39,232 bases of DNA from positions 1-39,232 of IMG/VR virus record IMGVR_UViG_3300008121_000007; one strand, 5' to 3'. Origin of the DNA: a virus. Both the position numbers and the translations under genes were made by a program. Positions 18,808 to 38,109 of the stretch are shown here, one piece after another (position 1 is the first letter of the stretch; each line of letters begins with the position of its first letter). The notes below the pieces were generated by a model that saw only the letters and a list, made by a program, of their open reading frames with translations, ran no database searches and had not been told where the DNA came from.

Positions 18808-18843
18808 AAAAAAACCCCCAGCCCCGGTAAAGGGACTGAGGGT
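18808..18843 (-). terminator. Strong rho-independent terminator after the capsid gene (T7 T-phi position)
   Basis: On the minus strand a 12-bp stem (18843-18832 with 18825-18814), loop of six bases, is followed by seven T. Two of the pairs are G-T on the minus strand but C-A mismatches on the plus strand, so it works only in the direction of transcription. T7 has its late terminator at the same place, after gene 10. Confidence 0.92.
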
Positions 18844-18868: not shown

Positions 18869-19801
18869 TTAGGCGGTAGCGACTTCGACGGCGCACTCCG
18901 GACGGAGCCAGTCGTGACCGACCGCGTACGAGCCGACCATGAAGAACGACTGGTTGCGGATTTCGCGCTCCATTTCCATGGCGAGCGTCATCAGCTGGAC
19001 CGAACCGACGGCAGCCTTGTGCGTAATGACACCACGGTTGTTGGTGTAGTTGGCGCGGATGGAGGACGGGAGAATGGTGTTGGCCGTGTCGTCAGTCGTC
19101 GGCAGGTTGTTCGTCTTCTGCAGGGTGATGCCTGCGACGGTCTCCAGAGTACCCTTGGAGATTTCGCCCGCGCCACCGAAGAACTTGTTCAGGAGGCGGT
19201 CACGCTGGGCCAGGATATAGAACTGGGCCGGACGAACGAAGAAGTGGCGGTCATCAGCCGGGATGTCCTTTTCGTCGAGGGTCTGCGCCGCGGTGAAGAG
19301 GGCAGCTTCGAGGAGGGCACCGTCGGCGGAGATCGAGGCGTTGATGATGCGCGAACCACCAGCACGGCCCGTGAGGGGGTTGGTAGCACGGGCACCAAGG
19401 ATCATCGAGCGAGCGATGTTCTTGTCGTAGAGGTAGGCAAGCTGGCGACCAATCTCCGTGGAGATGGGCTCACGAGCATCGAAGTGGTTCATCGCCTCGT
19501 CGATGTCAGCGACCGACGCCGAAGCGACAACCTTGGACTCGACGGTGATGGTCTTCTCAGCCAGCGGCACAGTCGATTCAGCGATACGAGCGCCGGGCGT
19601 GTGGGTCGTAACGGCAACCGAACCGACGGACGGGAAGGTCGCGGAACGGCCGCTCTGAATTTGCTTGGAAAAGTGCTTGTCGCGGAATTTCGTCGCGGTC
19701 TCGAAAGCGGTGAAGACTTCGCCGCTGAAGAGCTTGAGGAAGTTAACGTCAACCTGGCCAGCGGAGTTGTTCTGGCCTAGACGTGAAACAGTTGCAGTCA
19801 T
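18869..19801 (-). CDS. Major capsid protein (T7 gp10A-like)
   Basis: The 310-aa HK97-fold shell protein (T7 gp10A is 344 aa) starts MTATVSRLGQNNSAGQVD at ATG 19801; a longer frame to 19855 is unlikely because the family starts here. Typical segments are FLKLFSGEVFTAFE, the RSATFPSVG region and the C-terminal VGSYAVGHDWLRPE. It is preceded by a roughly 230-base leader and bracketed by two related terminators (20031-20064 and 18808-18843). It is thus isolated as a single-gene transcription unit, consistent with very high expression. No gp10B-like frameshift extension is apparent. Confidence 0.96.
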   Translation of the reverse strand: MTATVSRLGQNNSAGQVDVNFLKLFSGEVFTAFETATKFRDKHFSKQIQSGRSATFPSVGSVAVTTHTPGARIAESTVPLAEKTITVESKVVASASVADIDEAMNHFDAREPISTEIGRQLAYLYDKNIARSMILGARATNPLTGRAGGSRIINASISADGALLEAALFTAAQTLDEKDIPADDRHFFVRPAQFYILAQRDRLLNKFFGGAGEISKGTLETVAGITLQKTNNLPTTDDTANTILPSSIRANYTNNRGVITHKAAVGSVQLMTLAMEMEREIRNQSFFMVGSYAVGHDWLRPECAVEVATA

Positions 19802-20030
19802 GGGGAGGGGAGTCCTGTTGGTGTGTGGGGGTGGCCAAACACCCAGCGGACGCACATCCGGTAGTTGACGCCAGCAAGCCCCCGCAGGGGATGGTGGGAT
19901 CAGCCGTTGTAGTCGGGAGGGTTAGAGCCGTAGCCTGCGAGAGCTTCGCAGGGCGCTGCCGCCTAGAAAGGGGCACAGCGGGGACCAAACAGGGAACATG
20001 GGAGGGGCCGCGAAGGGGGCCAGAACGCAG

Positions 20031-20064
20031 AAAGCCCCCAGACCCGGTGAGGGGGCTGAGGGCT
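20031..20064 (-). terminator. Terminator upstream of capsid, homologous to the one downstream
   Basis: The minus-strand stem AGCCCTCAG..CCC with GGG..CTGGGGGCT is followed by TTTCT. It shares the layout and most bases of the post-capsid terminator at 18808-18843. It would end transcripts coming from the scaffold and lysis genes. Confidence 0.7.
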
Positions 20065-20145
20065 CTTGGTGGGCTGTCATACCGATTTGCTCTCGGTCAA
20101 TCCGCCCCCGGCCAGGGGCCTAGACGGTGATGGAGCTTACGGGGG

Positions 20146-20242
20146 ATAGGCTCACTACATCCCTTCCACTAACGGTGGGCCATGCAGTGAGGTAGTCCGG
20201 ATGTAGCGGGGAGCGTCCCCAGCGCCGTCCGTAGCGCAATGT
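20146..20242. ncRNA. Structured element, unit 1 of a tandem duplication
   Basis: The unit starts ATAGGC. Hairpin A uses CTCACT/AGTGAG with inner CCAC/GTGG. Then comes the conserved single-stranded GGTAGTCC. Hairpin B has outer arms GGATG/CGTCC and inner arms GGGG/CCCC around AGCGT, and the unit ends GTAGCGC. Compared with unit 2 several pairs change on both sides, which indicates selection for folding. The strand is not settled: one G-T wobble favours plus and one favours minus. Confidence 0.6.
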
Positions 20243-20340
20243 ATAGGCCCCCGCACCCCTTCCTAGCGACGGTAGGGCAGTGCGGGGGGTAGTCCGGGTG
20301 TAACAGGGAGCGACCCTAACGCCACCCGTAGCGCGACTCT
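20243..20340. ncRNA. Structured element, unit 2 of a tandem duplication
   Basis: The same order of parts as unit 1: ATAGGC, hairpin A (CCCCCGCAC/GTGCGGGGG, inner CCTA/TAGG), GGTAGTCC, hairpin B (GGGTG/CACCC outer, AGGG/CCCT inner, loop AGCGA) and GTAGCGC. In hairpin B the outer A-T pair becomes G-C, and the inner G-C becomes A-T. It begins three bases after the GNAT stop in transcription order. Confidence 0.6.
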
Positions 20341-20342
20341 GT

Positions 20343-20756
20343 TTAAAGGGGTTTCACCAACGTCACGAGGTGTTTACGATAGCCCAGCTTCTCATATGCC
20401 GAGAGGGCCATCAGGTTGTCCGCCAGACATGTAACCTCCAGCTCGGCACTCATGCCCCGGTTCGCCACCATCTTCTCAAAGGTCTTGACCAGGCGTCTGC
20501 CCAGGCCCAGACTCCGGTAATCGTGATCGACGAAGAGGTGGAGGATGCGGCCAGCGCAGAAGTTGCCGTATAGGTAGCCACACAGGCCCTGCTCACGCTC
20601 GACAACTAGACACCTGGTGGCAAGGGGGGCGGCTTGAGCCTGCCAGTTGGTCAGCTTCGGCGGATCGAGGGCGTCCTCGTACTCTCCGAGGGCCTCGAAC
20701 ATGCGCCACACTTCAAGGTTGTCGGCAGGGGTGCCGGAGCGTATCGTGAAGCTCAC
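20343..20756 (-). CDS. GNAT-family N-acetyltransferase, 137 aa
   Basis: The sequence has the GNAT acetyl-CoA-binding core: strand ILHLFVDHDY, then the pyrophosphate loop RSLGLGRRLVKTFEK (residues about 81-95), and a C-terminal NLMALSAYEKLGYRKH helix. The substrate cannot be read from sequence; phage GNATs may modify host proteins or tRNA, or give immunity to toxins. It starts at GTG 20756, overlapping the upstream 54-aa gene stop as GTGA, and closes the lysis operon just before the structured repeats. Confidence 0.88.
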   Translation of the reverse strand: MSFTIRSGTPADNLEVWRMFEALGEYEDALDPPKLTNWQAQAAPLATRCLVVEREQGLCGYLYGNFCAGRILHLFVDHDYRSLGLGRRLVKTFEKMVANRGMSAELEVTCLADNLMALSAYEKLGYRKHLVTLVKPL

Positions 20757-20917
20757 TCAACGTCCTCGTAGAGTTCGAGGTAGAGGGACTTCAGTGCTTT
20801 GCGGAGCTTGTACTCGCGGCTCAGGACGTTGTGGAGGCTTGTGCCGGACAGCTCCATGTCCTCAAGATGCTCCATCATCTCCTGGAGCTCGGTCAGCGTG
20901 TATTCATCTAGGTTCAA
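20753..20917 (-). CDS. Small acidic helical protein, 54 aa, TTG start
   Basis: This short frame starts at TTG 20917 with AAAGGAA about 7 bases upstream. The product is helical and acidic (NLDEYTLTELQEMMEHLEDM, then REYKLRKALKSLYLELYEDVE). It overlaps the o-spanin stop upstream and the GNAT start downstream (GTGA), so it sits in a run of coupled genes, which supports its reality. I recognise no family; the length and the charged amphipathic helices suggest a small regulatory or binding protein. Confidence 0.65.
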   Translation of the reverse strand: MNLDEYTLTELQEMMEHLEDMELSGTSLHNVLSREYKLRKALKSLYLELYEDVE

Positions 20918-21282: not shown

Positions 21283-21464
21283 TGCTTGGCCTTGGGCGTG
21301 ATGATGCCAGCGACCCACTCAACGACGCGGTAGGCCTTGGCGAGGGCCTCATCGTCCTTGGGGGTGGGGGTCATGTTCACTACGATGAGGGCGAACGCGT
21401 GGAGCGCCACGACGGCGGAGAGAAGGGCGGAGGCGTTAGCCATCACCCAGTCAATGATGTTCAT
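21279..21464 (-). CDS. Putative holin, 61 aa
   Basis: The start is ATG 21464, overlapping the amidase stop as ATGA. The product MNIIDWVMANASALLSAVVALHAFALIVVNM contains one strong membrane segment, and a second weak amphipathic segment (YRVVEWVAGIITP) lies near the C-terminus. Position between amidase and spanins is the standard holin place, so it probably releases or triggers the endolysin. Another membrane protein (5456-5722) lies in the T7 holin slot. Confidence 0.75.
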   Translation of the reverse strand: MNIIDWVMANASALLSAVVALHAFALIVVNMTPTPKDDEALAKAYRVVEWVAGIITPKAKQ

Positions 21465-21907
21465 GGTTTGGTGTCTTTCACGAGGGTGGGGGTGTTGGCG
21501 GCCTTCCACCACGACCTGACGTCGAAGCAGGGACAGGCCTTGGCTACACGTGGGAAGTCTCGGTGGCCGAGAATCTCAGCGCCCGGATGCTTCCGGAGGA
21601 GGCTCCTCAGGAGGAGTACCATCGCGGTCTTCTGGGCCGGGGTGCGGGTGTCCTTGGGGACATTCTTGGAGGTCACACCACCGACGTAGGCAATGCCGAG
21701 GGAGTTGGCGTTATGCCCAGCAACGTGGGCACCGGTCTCCTCCTCAGGACGGCCTATGGAGACCTCACCGTCAAGGTGGATGAGGTAGTGATACCCGATC
21801 TTCTGGAAACCACGCTGCATGTGCATCGAGTTGATCTGGGCTCGGGTGAACTCCTTACCCTCCGGCGTGGCCGTACAGTGGACGACGAGCTGGGTGATCT
21901 TGCGCAT
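21461..21907 (-). CDS. N-acetylmuramoyl-L-alanine amidase (T7 lysozyme gp3.5-like endolysin)
   Basis: The 148-aa enzyme (T7 lysozyme is 151 aa) cleaves the amide bond between muramic acid and L-alanine. Zinc ligands are His10 (VVHCTAT), His115 (ILGHRDF) and Cys125 (KACPCFD), and the catalytic GYHYLI tyrosine and Lys124 are present. T7 lysozyme also binds and inhibits T7 RNA polymerase; whether this one does cannot be read from sequence. In T7 gene 3.5 lies among the replication genes, whereas here it lies between scaffold and capsid in a lysis cassette. ATG 21907 overlaps the scaffold stop (TAATG). Confidence 0.95.
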   Translation of the reverse strand: MRKITQLVVHCTATPEGKEFTRAQINSMHMQRGFQKIGYHYLIHLDGEVSIGRPEEETGAHVAGHNANSLGIAYVGGVTSKNVPKDTRTPAQKTAMVLLLRSLLRKHPGAEILGHRDFPRVAKACPCFDVRSWWKAANTPTLVKDTKP

Positions 21908-22755
21908 TAGAGCTGCGATCTATCCAGCTTAGCGCGGACCTTGGCGCGGAAGTCCGGGTCCTTTTTGTACTCGGGCTTCGCCATGTCCTTGGACACGTCG
22001 TACATGGATGTGTACACGTCAGAGCTGGCAATGCTCGGGGCGGTTGCCTGCACAACGGTGGGATTGCCCTTGTTGGCTGCGCGATACTTGGACTGAAGAC
22101 CGGCCACGGCCAGAGAAGCCGCAGCGCCACCACCGGTGATGGCCGTATCATAGGCGGCCCTCTCTTCAGGCGTGAAATTGCGGGCGGCCCACTGGACCAT
22201 GTCGCTGTAGGCTTTTTCGCCGCCCACGGAGTTCATGATCGTCTTCGCCTCATTGACGGCGCGGTCTCGGGTGGCCTGATCGCGGACCTTGGCGGACTCT
22301 ACGTAGTCATCGACGAGCTGCTTGGCGAGCTCCGGGGCAAAGCCTTTGGAAGCCAGAAGGTCCACGATCTTGCCGCGGCTCTCGGGCGTAACGTCGCCCG
22401 TCTTGGTGTACTCTTCCTGCCACGGCGCAAAGGCCGCGTTGTCCACGCCGGGGACGACCTGTTCATCCGCTGACTTGTCATCGGGGCTGGGAGCGCCGTC
22501 GTCCGGCTTGACATCCGGTATAGTCAGCCCGTCGGTGGGCTTGGCTTCGGGCTGGGGGTCTGTTGGAGCGGGGTCAGGTGTGACCGCAGCGCCTTTCTTG
22601 AGTGCTGCCAGCTCTTGCTGTACGCGGGTCAGCTCGGCCTTCGTATCCTTGAGTGCCTTCTCCGCTGGAGCTGTGGACTCCGAGACCGGATCAGGAACCG
22701 CCACGGGCCTCTCAGGGCCGGTGACGGGGGCTTGGATCGTGAGGATGTCCGACAT
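21907..22755 (-). CDS. Scaffolding protein (T7 gp9-like capsid assembly protein)
   Basis: The 282-aa acidic protein (T7 gp9 is 307 aa) has a coiled-coil start (KALKDTKAELTRVQQELAALKK, residues about 32-54), a Pro/Asp-rich middle and a helical C-terminal half ending FRAKVRAKLDRSQL, the usual basic capsid-binding tail. It directs prohead assembly and then leaves. It lies between portal and lysis genes and starts at ATG 22755 within TAATG. Confidence 0.9.
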   Translation of the reverse strand: MSDILTIQAPVTGPERPVAVPDPVSESTAPAEKALKDTKAELTRVQQELAALKKGAAVTPDPAPTDPQPEAKPTDGLTIPDVKPDDGAPSPDDKSADEQVVPGVDNAAFAPWQEEYTKTGDVTPESRGKIVDLLASKGFAPELAKQLVDDYVESAKVRDQATRDRAVNEAKTIMNSVGGEKAYSDMVQWAARNFTPEERAAYDTAITGGGAAASLAVAGLQSKYRAANKGNPTVVQATAPSIASSDVYTSMYDVSKDMAKPEYKKDPDFRAKVRAKLDRSQL

Positions 22756-22955: not shown

Positions 22956-24554
22956 TTATCCTTGTGGGGGCGGGGGCGCAGCCTGTGGTTGGCCCCTCAT
23001 TGCGGTCTGGACGGTGCCACCAAGCTGGTTGATGGCGTTCGGCCCGAGCTGTTGGACCATCTGCATCATCTGGGCCTGTTGCTGAGCAGCGGCCTGCTCT
23101 TCCGGCGTCTTGATGAGGCCGTTCATGTCAACGCCATAGGAGGCACCCGCACGGGAGATGAACTCACCGATGTTGAGGACCTGGGCGGCGGCTTCGTGGC
23201 CAAACATCTGGATGATGTCGTTCAGGAGCAGCTTCATGTTTTGTTGGTCGGCACCGCGGCCAAGGGCTTCGAGGCCGGTCACGATGACGGGCGACACAAG
23301 CTCTTTGGGGAGCGGCGGAGCCTTACGGCGTTTCTCCATGCGCTTCTCAAAGAGGCGCACGATTGGCATCTGAAACTCGGCGGCAAGGAGGGTGTACATA
23401 CCACCCAGTGCAGTATCGAGCTCGTTGGCCAGATAGCGAATTTCCTCAGCGGTCACCCGCTCGGCTGAGCGTTGGACGGCAGCGTTCATCAGGAAGGCGT
23501 AAGCGAGGCCCTGGGCGATAGCCTGAGCCTGCTGCATGGCGACCGAGAGGTCTTGCTGCTTGTTGCTCTGGAGCGTGCTGATGTCTTCGGCGTTACCGGC
23601 GACGACATCAAGGTTTTCAGCCTCGGCCACAACGCGGAGCTCCGTGACACCGTTGGGTGCAACGAAGAAGATAACGCGAGAGGCAGCGGCGGAGCCCTCA
23701 ACGATGGACTGGGTTAGCCCTTCGAGGGCATCAAGGTCACCGAGGAACTCCTCAACGTAGGCTCGACCATAGGACTCGCCCGGCTGAGAGTTGAGCCGGA
23801 GAGCTGTGTATGGCAGCTCGCCCTCTTCAAACTCGCCCTTGGTGCTTTCCAGCACGACGCTGTTGAGCTCTTGGTGAACCAGCCAGCGTTCGGTCTGGTT
23901 GTCCCAGACGCCATAGGTGTAAAGGTCCTCGACCTTGTCATCGCCGGGGGTGGGTGAGCCCGCAGCGTCCCGGTTGTCGGGCTCGATGCCCGCCTCAGAA
24001 AGGATTTCCGCGGAGAGTGTGGACGGTGCCACCCGCTCCTTGATGCAGAACTCGATAAGCTGGCCGTCCGGAGACCTGTTGACGACAAATTGGTCCAGCC
24101 TCCATCCCCGACACCGGCCATCTTCTGGAGGCGTGTACAGTAAGAAGTTACCAGTCACGAGCAGGTGCTGAAACGCTACTGATGCCACGGGGCGGAACAA
24201 GGCCGGACCCATCTCAGCAGTGACGGCTTTCTCTCGGCTGTTTAGGGCTTTCTCAATTTCGCCACGCTTGGTCGCGTCGGCTGATCCTGCGGAGAGCTCT
24301 CCCAGGGCCAGGTCGTCAATCGCATATTTGAAGAAGGGGGTGTTGGGGAACAGCGCAAGGAGCAGCTTAGCCCCAAGAGTGCGGACCCCACGAGCTCCGA
24401 GGCTCTGGTAGGGGGTGGTAAACTCTGTTGAAGCGGAGGTGCCGCTTGGAGGAGCAATAAATGGAATGGTAAGCAGGGCACAGTCACGAGCGCGATTGAG
24501 GAACGGCGATCGATTGTTTTCCAGTGCCGCGTACCGCTGTGCGGCTATGCTCAC
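22956..24554 (-). CDS. Portal / head-tail connector protein (T7 gp8-like)
   Basis: The 532-aa protein equals T7 gp8 (536 aa) in size. Hallmarks are AAQRYAALENNRSPFLNRARDC near the start, TTPYQSLGARGVRTLGAKLLLALFP at about 46-70, and a Gln/Met-rich C-terminus (QAAAQQQAQMMQMVQQLG). Twelve copies form the DNA gateway of the capsid. The start is GTG 24554, just after the stop of the gp7.3-like gene. Confidence 0.96.
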   Translation of the reverse strand: MSIAAQRYAALENNRSPFLNRARDCALLTIPFIAPPSGTSASTEFTTPYQSLGARGVRTLGAKLLLALFPNTPFFKYAIDDLALGELSAGSADATKRGEIEKALNSREKAVTAEMGPALFRPVASVAFQHLLVTGNFLLYTPPEDGRCRGWRLDQFVVNRSPDGQLIEFCIKERVAPSTLSAEILSEAGIEPDNRDAAGSPTPGDDKVEDLYTYGVWDNQTERWLVHQELNSVVLESTKGEFEEGELPYTALRLNSQPGESYGRAYVEEFLGDLDALEGLTQSIVEGSAAASRVIFFVAPNGVTELRVVAEAENLDVVAGNAEDISTLQSNKQQDLSVAMQQAQAIAQGLAYAFLMNAAVQRSAERVTAEEIRYLANELDTALGGMYTLLAAEFQMPIVRLFEKRMEKRRKAPPLPKELVSPVIVTGLEALGRGADQQNMKLLLNDIIQMFGHEAAAQVLNIGEFISRAGASYGVDMNGLIKTPEEQAAAQQQAQMMQMVQQLGPNAINQLGGTVQTAMRGQPQAAPPPPQG

Positions 24555-24791: not shown

Positions 24792-25031
24792 TTAGTTTTC
24801 CTGTTGAGAGAGAAGTCCCATGAGGTGGTGAACCACGCTCCTGGCCCCCTTTGCATATTCTAGACCGTGCTGCTCCACATGGGAGATGCGATCTGGAAAC
24901 ACAGCATTCAGGTACTCGATCAGGTCGGGTGTTACCCTAGGAACACTTAGGGAGGGGAAAGGGGGGGTTTGGCTAATAGGGGCGTTAAATCCCACGGCCT
25001 TGGCCCTCCGTTCCGAGAGGCGTGCGCTCAT
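24792..25031 (-). CDS. Small hypothetical protein, 79 aa
   Basis: ATG 25031 overlaps the end of the DUF5664 gene (25028) as ATGA, and the stop lies two bases before the gp7.3-like start. A basic N-terminus (MSARLSERRAKAVGF) is followed by a helical segment TPDLIEYLNAVFPDRISHVE and a hydrophobic end. It occupies the slot of T7 genes 6.5/6.7. gp6.7 is a virion protein of similar size, but no motif supports that identity. Confidence 0.7.
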   Translation of the reverse strand: MSARLSERRAKAVGFNAPISQTPPFPSLSVPRVTPDLIEYLNAVFPDRISHVEQHGLEYAKGARSVVHHLMGLLSQQEN

Positions 25032-33039: not shown

Positions 33040-33086
33040 TGGTTGCCTTTCGTGTTAGAAATCGGCTAATCGGGGCGTCAAATACC

Positions 33087-33100: not shown

Positions 33101-35503
33101 TCACGAGAAAAAGTAGGCGCTTTGATAGACCTCCTTTAGGTTGAGGGAACCACGCTGAGGGGGCGGATCGACAGTGATCCCGAGGCCGGTGGCCCGGTCG
33201 AAGAGCTCCCGCAGCGGGTCGTGGTTCTCATACATCTGGACGAACTGGTGCCGGATGGTGAGAGCAAGGCTGTCGAGGTCCCGCGCCCGTGTCCCGAAGC
33301 TGTCATGGATGCAGGCGAAGTGGGTCAGCCCCTCTTCCCTCGCCGCGGCAACCGTCAAACTAAGGGCTGCCGCGTCGTAGGAGTGGACGAAGTTTGGGGG
33401 GAAAGCGAGAGCCTGTCGCGCCCCGTCCAGCGTGTCGGTGTCCGTGTAGTAGTAGTTCCGGACCCGCTTCAAAGACCCGAAGATCGTGTTGATCCTCTCC
33501 TGCTTCTGGCTCATGTAGCCCTGATGGACCACAAAACCACTCGGGACCGACCAAGATAGAGACAGACCCTTCGCCGTGTAGGCACGGGAGAGCGTCTGGA
33601 GCCAGCCCATGGCGGCCCGAGCAGAGACCACGACGTGTCCGATCGCTTCCCAGATGACACCTGAGAGGTCCACGACGGCACGTCCGAGGGCGTCTCCGAA
33701 CGGGTTAGGCTTCCCGCCAGCGATCTTCTCGTTCACCGCTTCGCGAGTGTACTCAATGCACGACATGTGGGTGCCGCCGTATGGGAGAACCATGACTTGC
33801 CGCTTAGTGATCTTCCGGTCGATGCCAAAGTCCAGCCAGCCCTGCGCAATCCAGTCCCCCTCCAGAGCGCGGTCGTGAAGGATGCTCGACGCACGGACAG
33901 CCACCTCGCGGTAGATGTCCTGCGGCGTGGCCGACCCTGTGAGGTTGACGGCGGCCCCAGCGATGGGGTCCCGCAGCATGGCCGCGTAGTGTTGGAGGCC
34001 GTTGCAGGAACCGTCAACCGACACCGGTATGGTGGACGTCAGGCCCTGTACCACGCGCTGCCGGTCGAAGCAGTAGGCGAGGAAGGTCCATGGCTGGTCC
34101 GCCTCGGTCCACCAGAGGTCCGCAAAGGGGTCAGCGGCGGTGGCCAGGATGCGGATGTGGTTCCCCTGAGCCCACTGAAGGCGCTCAGTATAGGACACCT
34201 TGTCGATACCGAAGCAGTTGGCCCCATGGATGTCGAGAGCCCGGACGCCATGGTCCGGCTCTGGGTTGGCATCCGTGTCAACGGAGAACTGGAGCAGTGC
34301 CCGTGCCTCGTCAGGCCCCTGCGGCGACAGGCCGACGGGCTTGGCATAGACGCGTCCCCGGAAGTCAAGCTGATGGGGGAAGTACAGGGCCGGACAATCC
34401 TTGAGGTCGCTCGCGACTGACAGAAGACGGCTCGTCGTGAAGCGCTGGGCCTGCGCCTTGGCGTTCGCCTCATAGACACAGCGGGCTTCGTACTTCCACT
34501 TACGGAGCTCATCCGGCGAAGGCGTCCCGGTCCACGGCTTGGGCGGGAGCTCGTCGTCCTCCTTGTTGACAAGGCCGGGGAAGGCACGTCCCGTGTCCCA
34601 CGCCTGTTGCATCGTCTTCAGGACCCGCTGATTGACCGCCCAGGGCGTATCCTGAATGGCGTTGACCGCCGCATAGACGGTCTCAAGGGGGGCCTGAGCA
34701 AGGGCCTCGGTCTGCCCCTTGAAGGACCGCTTAGTGAGGGGCGACCGGCTCCCTAAGGTGCCCCGATAGCCGCCCCCACGAAGCCCCGTCCACGGCACGG
34801 GGGTCTCCACCATGGGCAGGTAGGCCGGGGCGAGCAGGCCCGCCTTGTGGGTGTGGTCCGCCAACCACGCGAGCGCCGCTGCTGAGAGGCGGATCATGCT
34901 CACGGGGCGCTTTCCGCGGCGGGTCTGGTAGAGCTCGAAGAGCTTGGTAGACCCCACCATCAGATCAATCAATGAGAGGCCGACCAAAAGGATGTGGCGG
35001 TGCGCCCACGGCTCTTGATCGTGCCCCCGCTGCTTGGCGTTGGCCCGGAGAACCACCGCAGCTCGCGATCCACCTGTGCCGCGCCTCTTCAGGGTCTGGG
35101 TGATGACCTTGACGGCGGCGGGATCAGCCTCGTTGAAGGAGCGGACGACGCCCTCGATCTCAACCGCCCGGCCGACCTCTCGCGCCATGGACGTGAGGGT
35201 GCAGCCGCCCTCCCCGGCCTCCGAGATGGCGTGGCGGAGCGTCAGATAAGCCAATACGGCTGGGTCCATGGCTCCGCAGAGCTGGAAGAGCAGGGGTGTT
35301 CGGCCCCGGCCCTGCGCCTCACAGGCCACCATGTGCTCGGCTACAGCCTGGATGACGGGCTCGATGACACCGCGCATGGACGCGATACCGGCCCGTGTCT
35401 CGGCCAGAGAGCCGCGCTCCAGCGCTGCGGCATAGTCACGACGCGCCCGGTCCACCCCGTCGGCGACCATTCGTGCATCTAACAGGTCTTGGGAAACTGT
35501 CAC
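33101..35503 (-). CDS. Single-subunit phage RNA polymerase (T7 gp1-like)
   Basis: With GTG 35503 as start (GAGG 5 bases upstream) the protein has 800 aa; a TTG at 35566 would add 21 residues of unlikely sequence. Catalytic residues are Asp497 (VSVDGSCNGLQHYAAMLRD), Lys567 and Tyr575 (KITKRQVMVLPYGG) and Asp734 (CIHDSFGT). The C-terminus AYFFS parallels the essential FAFA foot of T7 RNA polymerase (883 aa). It transcribes the middle and late genes from its own promoters. It lies downstream of the integrase/tRNA block and its terminator, so it needs either read-through or a promoter in 35504-35845. Confidence 0.96.
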   Translation of the reverse strand: MTVSQDLLDARMVADGVDRARRDYAAALERGSLAETRAGIASMRGVIEPVIQAVAEHMVACEAQGRGRTPLLFQLCGAMDPAVLAYLTLRHAISEAGEGGCTLTSMAREVGRAVEIEGVVRSFNEADPAAVKVITQTLKRRGTGGSRAAVVLRANAKQRGHDQEPWAHRHILLVGLSLIDLMVGSTKLFELYQTRRGKRPVSMIRLSAAALAWLADHTHKAGLLAPAYLPMVETPVPWTGLRGGGYRGTLGSRSPLTKRSFKGQTEALAQAPLETVYAAVNAIQDTPWAVNQRVLKTMQQAWDTGRAFPGLVNKEDDELPPKPWTGTPSPDELRKWKYEARCVYEANAKAQAQRFTTSRLLSVASDLKDCPALYFPHQLDFRGRVYAKPVGLSPQGPDEARALLQFSVDTDANPEPDHGVRALDIHGANCFGIDKVSYTERLQWAQGNHIRILATAADPFADLWWTEADQPWTFLAYCFDRQRVVQGLTSTIPVSVDGSCNGLQHYAAMLRDPIAGAAVNLTGSATPQDIYREVAVRASSILHDRALEGDWIAQGWLDFGIDRKITKRQVMVLPYGGTHMSCIEYTREAVNEKIAGGKPNPFGDALGRAVVDLSGVIWEAIGHVVVSARAAMGWLQTLSRAYTAKGLSLSWSVPSGFVVHQGYMSQKQERINTIFGSLKRVRNYYYTDTDTLDGARQALAFPPNFVHSYDAAALSLTVAAAREEGLTHFACIHDSFGTRARDLDSLALTIRHQFVQMYENHDPLRELFDRATGLGITVDPPPQRGSLNLKEVYQSAYFFS

Positions 35504-35610
35504 TGAGGCCTCATTTTTCTGGAGAAGGAAGGAATTTGGCAGCCAATGCCGCCGTGTGGTTTCCAATCAAAAACAGCGAGTTAGATCAGTGTTTTGGGAA
35601 ACATTCTTGA

Positions 35611-35845: not shown

Positions 35846-35869
35846 AAAAGGCCACCCGACTGGATGGCC
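35846..35869 (-). terminator. Rho-independent terminator of the integrase/accessory block
   Basis: The minus strand reads GGCCATCC-agtc-GGGTGGCC-TTTT. The 8-bp stem includes one T-G wobble that would be a mismatch on the plus strand, so it serves minus-strand transcripts. It overlaps the first four bases of the tRNA. Confidence 0.75.
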
Positions 35870-35951
35870 CCTTGGCGAAAACGGTAGACGCACAGCACTT
35901 AAAATGCTGAGCCTTATGGGCGTCCGGGTTCGACCCCCGGAGGGGCCACCA
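35866..35951 (+). tRNA. tRNA-Leu (UAA), complete with CCA; probable attachment site
   Basis: The 86-base gene folds as a class II tRNA. The acceptor is GGCCCCT/AGGGGCC plus A and encoded CCA; the D-arm is GGCGAAAACGGTAGACGC; the anticodon stem CAGCA/TGCTG has loop CTTAAAA (anticodon TAA); the variable arm is GCCTTATGGGC; the T-arm is CCGGG-TTCGACC-CCCGG. It is the only plus-strand gene. In integrase-bearing T7-like phages such as cyanophage P-SSP7, a tRNA-Leu sequence beside the integrase marks attP. A complete tRNA reading the rare UUA codon in a GC-rich phage also suggests att use rather than codon supply, but it may be functional. Confidence 0.93.
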
Positions 35952-36824: not shown

Positions 36825-37817
36825 TTAAGCTCCTTTCTGTTCAAGTACGTCCACCATCCCGGACATGTGCTCGGGACTGAGGTGGGCGTAAATCTGTGTG
36901 GTCACGATGGACAGGTGCCCCATCCACTCCTTCACCCGGTAAAGGTCCACTCCGCTTTGTACCAGCCAGCTCGCGCAGGTGTGTCTGAAGGTGTGCAGCG
37001 AGGCGCTGCCGATCCACGTGTGGTGGCTCCTCAGGCGCTCCCAGAGAGACCGCAGTCCCCACCTGTTCAGCGTCTGGAACCCTCTCGGGTCCATGTGGAT
37101 AGCGGCGGAGGCGCGAGCCGTGAGCGGGATGGTCCTGTCTCGGCCGTTCTTGGTCTTCAGGAAGGTCACTCGCGTGTCGGTCAGGCAGGTCCTGACGTCC
37201 ACCCCTAGGGCCTCCCCAACGCGAGCTCCGGTGTCCACTAGGAAGCAGAAGAAGCCAGCCTCAAGGTGGTAGCCCCACTGTCGGGTGGTTGCCACGATCT
37301 GGGCCACCTCGTCTCGGGTGAAGTACCGCTTGCGGCCCCTACCCTCCGGCTCCCATGTCAGAAGTGGCACCCTGTCGATCAGGTTGAGAGCCGAGGCGTG
37401 CTTCACGAGCACCGAGATGGCCGCGAGCCGACGATTGATGGTCCCGCCGCTGAGCTCGTTGACCTTCAGGTCCTCGACGTATTCAGTGATGTTGGCCGTC
37501 GTCAGCGCCTCGGAGACAGAGAGATACGGGCCGACAAACTCGGCGAAGTGTTCCGCATTTCGGGTGGATTTCACGCCGGACCCCTGTGCTGCCCACTGCG
37601 CCCGGTGACAATACTGGACATGGTCTTTTATCGCCACCAACTTTGTTTTGGTAGCCGTCGGCCCTGATGGAAGGGGTAGACCCTTGACCAAACTCACCCG
37701 CGCCTGAGCCTCCCAAGAGGCAGCCTCAAGCTCCGAGGCGAACCCGAACTCCCTGTAGCGGGCACCCGCGTGGGTAAAGTCCGCGTACCACCGATCACCC
37801 TTGGGCCGAGCTGTCAC
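36825..37817 (-). CDS. int: Tyrosine recombinase / phage integrase, 330 aa
   Basis: An N-terminal arm-binding part (DRWYADFTHAGARYREFGFAS) and a core-binding helix domain precede the catalytic domain with the full set Arg199 (DTGARVGEALG), Lys224 region (KTKNGRDRTIPL), His275/Arg278 (HTFRHTCASWL), His301 (MGHLSIVTTQ) and nucleophile Tyr310 (IYAHL). It would integrate the phage at a host site, most likely the tRNA-Leu. GTG 37817 has AAGGAG 6 bases upstream and overlaps the MarR-like gene by 23 bases. No excisionase is recognised, though small neighbours could serve. Confidence 0.95.
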   Translation of the reverse strand: MTARPKGDRWYADFTHAGARYREFGFASELEAASWEAQARVSLVKGLPLPSGPTATKTKLVAIKDHVQYCHRAQWAAQGSGVKSTRNAEHFAEFVGPYLSVSEALTTANITEYVEDLKVNELSGGTINRRLAAISVLVKHASALNLIDRVPLLTWEPEGRGRKRYFTRDEVAQIVATTRQWGYHLEAGFFCFLVDTGARVGEALGVDVRTCLTDTRVTFLKTKNGRDRTIPLTARASAAIHMDPRGFQTLNRWGLRSLWERLRSHHTWIGSASLHTFRHTCASWLVQSGVDLYRVKEWMGHLSIVTTQIYAHLSPEHMSGMVDVLEQKGA

Positions 37818-38109
37818 GAGAAACTCCTTTGTATCGCGAAAGATGGTTGCCGATCTGGGCCAGAACCCGCCGCCCCCGCTGCGTCAGAAGGTACTCCTTA
37901 CGCCGCCGGTCATTGGCGTCGGGGACCACCTCAATCAGGTTCAGGGGATCGGTGCCCCGGTTTCCGTACTGGCCGAGCAGGGCCAAGATGCGGGAGACCG
38001 AGGCGTCCGACAGGTCTGTCAGGTCTTCGAGCTCAGACTGGCTGATCGCACGCTTCGAGGCCACCAAGAGGAAGACCTGAAGCTGTGCGACGGTCAGACT
38101 AGGAGACAC
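37795..38109 (-). CDS. MarR-like winged-helix regulator, 104 aa
   Basis: The sequence LTVAQLQVFLLVASKRAISQSELEDLTDLSDASVSRILALL is a helix-turn-helix, followed by the wing VPDANDRRRKEYLLTQRGRRVLAQIG, as in phage-borne MarR-type proteins. It overlaps the integrase start and may control integration or the early operon. GTG 38109 has GGAGG 8 bases upstream. The frame extends upstream to 38172 without a stop, so a slightly longer form starting at a non-standard codon is conceivable but not needed. Confidence 0.88.
   Translation of the reverse strand: MSPSLTVAQLQVFLLVASKRAISQSELEDLTDLSDASVSRILALLGQYGNRGTDPLNLIEVVPDANDRRRKEYLLTQRGRRVLAQIGNHLSRYKGVSRDSSAQG

What the first reader, a model, noticed from the sequence alone, without database searches (positions are those of the whole stretch)
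20146..20340. Tandem duplicated structured element with compensatory changes upstream of capsid
Two units of about 97 bases share order and conserved unpaired words (GGTAGTCC, GTAGCGC), while paired positions change together: GGATG/CGTCC versus GGGTG/CACCC, GGGG/CCCC versus AGGG/CCCT, CTCACT/AGTGAG versus CCGCAC/GTGCGG. This is the signature of a folded RNA under selection. It lies between the GNAT stop and the capsid terminator and matches no phage RNA I know. It might protect mRNA ends, act in packaging or host takeover, or bind a protein.
Basis: partly seen in the sequence, partly recalled or inferred. Interest (0 to 1): 0.8.

Follow-up and report, generated by a model that had tools for sequence, protein, structure and literature searches.

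The report
Duplicated structured element before capsid gene
A T7-like phage that carries an integrase has, just before its capsid gene, two copies of a two-hairpin element whose paired bases have changed together, so the folded shape is clearly maintained; relatives carry a third copy, other hairpins, or transfer-RNA genes at the same spot, but what the element does is not yet known.

Summary
Window 20146-20341 contains two tandem units of 97 and 99 nt (77% identical), each with a 34-nt hairpin (B) and a 41-nt hairpin (A) joined by conserved linkers. Eight of 20 pairs differ on both sides between the units yet still pair; the same substitutions placed at random give 1.0 on average and never more than 6 in 200,000 trials. 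A model built only from the window finds a third B hairpin in a sister phage (L019), directly after the acetyltransferase stop codon as in the window, with its outer stem rewritten but still paired. No further copy turned up in related phage and prophage loci, sampled genomes, Rfam or the phage records. L019 and L021 are 99.8% identical but differ in exactly this cassette. In 11 of 216 related phages the same slot holds tRNA genes. So this is a real, narrowly distributed structured element in a slot for exchangeable structured RNA. Best guess: a processing or 3'-end protection element of the late mRNA. The strand is not settled: pair counts slightly favour the gene strand, folding energy the antisense strand. 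A non-coding or antisense RNA and a REP-like DNA palindrome remain open.

The parts
20295..20328 (-). hairpin B of unit 2: outer stem CGGGTG/CACCCG, asymmetric internal loop 5/4 nt, inner stem AGGG/CCCT, loop TCGCT
   Evidence: model R1 51.2 bits; pair counts
20248..20288 (-). hairpin A of unit 2: 10-pair outer stem CCCCCGCACT/GGTGCGGGGG region plus inner stem
   Evidence: pair counts and RNAalifold
20198..20231 (-). hairpin B of unit 1: outer stem CGGACG/CATCCG (one C.A mismatch on this strand), inner stem GGGG/CCCC, loop ACGCT
   Evidence: model R1 48.5 bits; pair counts
20151..20191 (-). hairpin A of unit 1: 10-pair outer stem CTCACTGCAT/ATGTAGTGAG plus inner stem
   Evidence: pair counts and RNAalifold
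20288..20297 (+). invariant word GGTAGTCCGG between hairpins A and B, unit 2 (CCGGACTACC on the gene strand); the flanking CTACC is also kept in L019
20191..20200 (+). invariant word GGTAGTCCGG between hairpins A and B, unit 1
20326..20334 (+). invariant word CCGTAGCGC flanking hairpin B, unit 2
20229..20237 (+). invariant word CCGTAGCGC flanking hairpin B, unit 1
20343..20756 (-). GNAT acetyltransferase gene, directly upstream on the gene strand
   Evidence: Pfam PF00583 E 2.2e-12
20030..20057 (-). terminator-like hairpin AGCCCCC...GGGGGCT followed by TTTCTGCGTT; the strict terminator scan did not list it
   Evidence: sequence, similar hairpin after the capsid gene, compensated counterpart in L021
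18869..19801 (-). major capsid gene downstream of the element
   Evidence: relatives by protein comparison

Best explanation
The element is a pair of tandem two-hairpin modules in the untranslated stretch between the GNAT stop codon and a terminator-like hairpin, just upstream of the capsid gene. It sits in a slot that this group of T7-like phages uses for exchangeable structured-RNA cassettes. Shown: position, tandem duplication, compensatory evolution, a homologous hairpin in a sister phage, cassette replacement between two otherwise near-identical phages, and tRNA genes at the same slot in some relatives. Inferred: it is transcribed with the late operon, folds in the mRNA, and acts in cis as a processing or 3'-end protection element (ribonuclease cleavage or exonuclease block), with the invariant linkers (GCGCUAC, GGACUACC) as recognition sites. 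It would then work like the RNase III sites of T7 mRNA.
For: 8 of 20 pairs doubly changed against 1.0 expected; third copy with a rewritten but paired outer stem at the same place; element lies directly after a stop codon on the gene strand and before a terminator-like hairpin; T7 R1.1 is a hairpin with an asymmetric 4/5 internal loop between two genes (PMC6121014) and hairpin B has a 5/4 loop; slot holds tRNA genes in 11 of 216 relatives, so structured RNA is made there on the gene strand.
Against: No transcript or cleavage data. The helices (10-15 pairs) are short for RNase III. On the gene strand unit 1 has a competing fold 0.9 kcal/mol better, and in the 323-nt context its pairs are nearly absent, while the + strand folds into the consensus. 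Closely related L021 has no B hairpin, so B is not essential in the clade.
Confidence: 0.36

Rival explanations
1. A stable small RNA acting in trans: the stretch of about 310 nt from the GNAT stop to the terminator is processed out, or transcribed on its own, as the tRNAs in the same slot of relatives are, and binds a protein or another RNA.
For: Slot holds tRNA genes in relatives; terminator-like hairpin at its end; invariant linkers between changing stems; cassette replacement between near-identical phages.
Against: No promoter-like site was found in 19700-20800 (sigma-70 type only); no Rfam match; the family has only three copies.
Confidence: 0.22
2. A REP-like DNA palindrome: GTAG followed by an imperfect palindrome with an internal bulge, read on the + strand, spread by a host TnpA-REP transposase and duplicated in tandem.
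For: GGTAG precedes all three B hairpins on the + strand; REPs are 20-50 nt palindromes preceded by GTAG, E. coli REPs have a required bulge, and tandem copies are common (PMC8266576); the consensus is the minimum-energy fold of both units on the + strand.
Against: Only two copies in the phage and none elsewhere in it; no repeat family in 463 sampled bacterial genomes (the host is unknown); no Y1 transposase in the phage; in L019 the GTAG lies inside the stem.
Confidence: 0.13
3. An antisense RNA from the + strand that folds into the four hairpins and regulates the late operon.
For: Consensus is the minimum-energy fold on the + strand (pair probabilities 0.93 and 0.88); antisense transcripts were reported in the structural region of LUZ100 downstream of its capsid gene (PMC10134795).
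Against: No + strand promoter or terminator found; one fewer pair on this strand; the LUZ100 antisense RNA is on the other side of the capsid gene.
Confidence: 0.13
4. A control element for read-through or capsid expression: the hairpins slow or insulate transcription between the lysis/GNAT operon and the capsid unit, perhaps by switching between the consensus fold and the alternative pairing CTACATCC/GGATGTAG.
For: Terminator-like hairpins on both sides of the capsid gene; an 8-pair alternative helix in unit 1 and a 6-pair one in unit 2 at the corresponding place.
Against: The alternative helix is not conserved in L019, which lacks hairpin A; a terminator already separates the units.
Confidence: 0.1
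5. No function: tandem duplication of a palindrome whose arms are kept alike by templated mutation (quasi-palindrome correction).
For: This mutation mechanism is known (general knowledge) and can give double changes without selection.
Against: Linkers are invariant while stems change, and internal-loop mismatches and wobble pairs are kept rather than perfected; paired columns change somewhat more than unpaired ones (18 of 40 against 15 of 57, Fisher p 0.08).
Confidence: 0.06

Closest known systems
RNase III processing sites of phage T7 mRNAs (e.g. R1.1, between genes 1.0 and 1.1)
   Same: Intergenic hairpin in a T7-like phage; asymmetric internal loop (R1.1 4/5 nt, PMC6121014; here 5/4 nt)
   Different: Shorter helices, tandem two-hairpin units with invariant linkers; cleavage untested
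tRNA genes upstream of the capsid gene in related phages
   Same: Same slot, structured RNA, gene strand; one or two in a row
   Different: No tRNA fold, no ARAGORN or Rfam match to tRNA in the element
REP / BIME elements with TnpA-REP (RAYT)
   Same: GTAG before an imperfect, bulged palindrome; intergenic; tandem arrangement (PMC8266576)
   Different: Two copies only, no genome family found, no transposase in the phage, GTAG inside the stem in L019
LUZ100 late region
   Same: T7-like phage with integrase and MarR-like gene; capsid gene with its own promoter and a terminator right after it; antisense RNA near the capsid gene (PMC10134795)
   Different: No match of the element in the phage collection; no such element was seen in the passages read

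Membership tests
Selected nucleic-acid secondary structure | Pairs maintained by changes on both sides beyond chance | tested here: met
   8 of 20 pairs, null mean 1.0 and maximum 6 in 200,000; three-copy covariation 0.80 against 0.33
Selected nucleic-acid secondary structure | Homologue outside the training sequences | tested here: met
   Model R2, built from the window only, finds L019 with E 0.0013
RNA rather than DNA element | Strand preference of the fold | tested here: inconclusive
   Pair counts 39/40 gene strand and 38/40 + strand; energy favours + strand
RNA rather than DNA element | Transcript present | not testable with these tools
   needs RNA-seq or Northern blot
RNase III processing site (T7 type) | Intergenic hairpin with internal loop | tested here: met
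   hairpin B 6 pairs, 5/4 loop, 4 pairs
RNase III processing site (T7 type) | Cleavage by RNase III | not testable with these tools
   needs an in vitro or knock-out test
REP element | GTAG directly 5' of an imperfect palindrome of 20-50 nt | tested here: inconclusive
   met in the two window copies (2-nt spacer); in L019 GTAG is inside the stem
REP element | High copy number in a genome | tested here: not met
   two copies in the phage; no family in 463 sampled genomes, host unknown
REP element | Associated TnpA-REP transposase | tested here: not met
   PF01797 absent from the phage record; host untested
tRNA or other Rfam family | Match to the family model | tested here: not met
   no match at gathering score; best at low threshold is a 16-bit chance hit

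The most novel reading that the evidence does not exclude
The units are a new class of small phage RNA that occupies the capsid-upstream slot otherwise used for tRNA genes, is exchanged as a cassette between near-identical phages, and binds a host or defence protein through its invariant linkers.
Probability: 0.13. Interest if true: 0.72.

Novelty: new member of a known kind. Interest (0 to 1): 0.42.

Why it matters
It is an unusually clear case of compensatory evolution between tandem copies within one phage genome, and it points to the stretch upstream of the capsid gene in T7-like phages as a slot where tRNAs and other structured cassettes are swapped. If the units are RNAs that bind a protein, the slot would be a place to look for further small phage RNAs. 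As it stands the family is very small (three hairpin copies in two phages) and the function is open.

Tried and rejected
Protein coding: rejected; no frame is open across both units, the unit length is not a multiple of three, and changes follow pairing. tRNA or known Rfam RNA: rejected. Copies elsewhere in the window: none. Exact pattern scans of IMG/VR: a strict pattern gave no hit; a looser one gave 47 stretches, of which only the sister-phage contig has both helices intact with the same loop geometry. Relatives by capsid, portal, endolysin and scaffold: only three or four contigs close enough. L021 as a further copy: a BLAST hint (E 0.4) did not hold with the covariance model. Genome hits of the B model: at most 31 bits (true copies 48-51), scattered and single; the 399-genome sample gave four at E 0.01 or better, as expected by chance, and the two best (same family, E about 0.001 per genome) share no sequence with each other beyond the model. 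Sigma-70 promoters and strict terminators in 19700-20800: none. Host through the tRNA-Leu: best only 83% identical, host not identified.

Full report
WHAT IS THERE. The window is an IMG/VR virus record of 39,232 bases, a T7-like phage whose genes are nearly all on the - strand: RNA polymerase 33101-35566, portal 22956-24554, scaffold 21907-22755, endolysin 21461-21907, capsid 18869-19801 (names from relatives and position). It carries an integrase (36825-37817) and a MarR-like gene (37795-38109), which puts it near phages such as LUZ100, a T7-like phage with temperate features. The element lies between the stop codon of a GNAT acetyltransferase gene (20343) and a terminator-like hairpin (20057-20030), which is followed by a leader of about 220 nt and the capsid gene. 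A similar terminator hairpin follows the capsid gene at 18837.

The units 20146-20242 and 20243-20341 align without internal gaps. Each has, 5' to 3' on the gene strand, the linker GCGCTAC, hairpin B (34 nt), the linker GGACTACC, and hairpin A (41 nt). The changes between the units sit in the stems in pairs: of 20 pairs, 8 are changed on both sides, 1 on one side, and 1 cell is unpaired. If the same 33 substitutions are placed at random, the means are 1.0 doubles and 7.7 unpaired cells, and 200,000 trials never exceeded 6 doubles. RNAalifold finds nearly the same structure with 9 doubly changed pairs. Folding energy alone would not have shown this (z about -2.8 on the gene strand).

A THIRD COPY. 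In the sister phage contig L019 (IMGVR_UViG_3300034356_000921), directly after the corresponding GNAT stop codon, stands GTAGCAA-GCGTT-GGGG-TCGCT-CCCC-GGAA-TTGCTAC. The core is that of hairpin B, while the outer stem has a wholly different sequence that still pairs. A covariance model built only from the two window units finds it with E 0.0013 in 0.95 Mb and finds nothing else. With three copies, 6 of 10 B pairs are doubly changed and the covariation score is 0.80 against 0.33 for shuffles. In that geometry a run of seven or more pairs occurs by chance at 0.16% of positions. There are only three sequences, so statements about single pairs are weak; the overall pattern is not.

A CASSETTE IN A SLOT. 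L019 and L021 are 99.8% identical over 6.9 kb up to the GNAT stop. They then carry unrelated stretches of about 70 and 120 nt (hairpin B in L019, other hairpins in L021), and are 99.3% identical again for the 142 nt up to the end of the L019 contig. The L019 hairpin lies within 200 nt of a contig end, but the matching sequence beyond it argues against an assembly artefact. The GNAT proteins of window and L021 are only 34% identical against 77% for the portal, so this is a variable spot. In 11 of 216 unique relatives with at least 450 nt upstream of the capsid gene, ARAGORN finds one or two tRNA genes there, mostly Asn and Trp. So the slot is used for structured RNA of more than one kind.

STRAND. 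The evidence conflicts. On the gene strand 39 of 40 cells pair, on the other 38: wobble pairs of stem A exist only on the gene strand and one of stem B only on the + strand. But on the + strand the consensus is the minimum-energy fold of both units (mean pair probability 0.93 and 0.88). On the gene strand unit 1 has an alternative fold 0.9 kcal/mol better, and within the 323-nt gene-strand RNA its pairs are nearly absent. The gene-strand reading is preferred mainly because the region lies inside a gene-strand operon with a gene-strand terminator-like hairpin.

MECHANISM. Best guess: a cis-acting mRNA element, hairpins in the 3' untranslated part of the late operon that guide processing or protect the 3' end, with the linkers as recognition sites (0.36). 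The analogy is to T7's RNase III sites, of which R1.1 has an asymmetric 4/5 internal loop (PMC6121014); the helices here are shorter and nothing shows cleavage. Rivals: a trans-acting small RNA (0.22), a REP-like DNA palindrome (0.13), an antisense RNA (0.13), control of read-through or capsid expression (0.10), and templated mutation without function (0.06).

KNOWN KINDS. No Rfam family matches. Neither the phage collection nor IMG/VR pattern scans gave another copy, and about 170 related phage and prophage loci searched with the model gave none. The REP comparison was tested because GGTAG precedes all three B hairpins on the + strand; the copy-number and transposase tests were not met, the GTAG position is inconclusive, and the host is unknown (genome scans 58, 59, 68, 69). 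The genome scans scored a limited number of candidates per genome, so they would miss rare weak copies but should not miss a large family of good ones.

VERDICT. A real structured element under selection, new as a family but of a familiar general kind, with unknown function. Interest is moderate: the compensatory pattern and the exchangeable slot are good leads; the tiny distribution and the lack of transcript data limit it.

Noticed in passing
window 33064-33083 and 24971-24990, - strand: Two copies of ATTTRACGCCCCKATTAGCC, directly after the RNA polymerase gene and upstream of the portal gene; none expected in shuffles. Possibly the phage RNA polymerase promoter.
   Followed up: partly
window 19985-19950, - strand; also L021, L024, L114, L194: A capsid leader hairpin, GTGCCCC-YTCTA-GGSGGC type, is conserved in phages whose capsid proteins are only about 50% identical.
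   Followed up: partly
window 20057-20030 and 18837-18812, - strand: Two similar terminator-like hairpins flank the capsid gene (18 of 22 bases alike).
   Followed up: no
L021 6955-7115 and L019 12258-12401: A series of hairpins separated by linkers of the type CCGGGTYATTAAACT stands where the window has its units; sequence unrelated to the units.
   Followed up: no
window 2822-2740: Four to five short tandem hairpin repeats, GTGTGTCTCCCCGAAGGG.
   Followed up: no
window 4880-4815 and 2690-2615, - strand: Shared terminator-like sequence GGGGCTCTTCTGTCACCTG at two places.
   Followed up: no
L194 2729-2812: A tRNA-like gene with an enlarged anticodon loop (ARAGORN reads a four-base anticodon, tcga) upstream of the capsid gene.
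   Followed up: no
window 35866-35951, + strand: A tRNA-Leu (taa) gene on the strand opposite to the phage genes, near the integrase region; best match in the sampled genomes 83%.
   Followed up: partly
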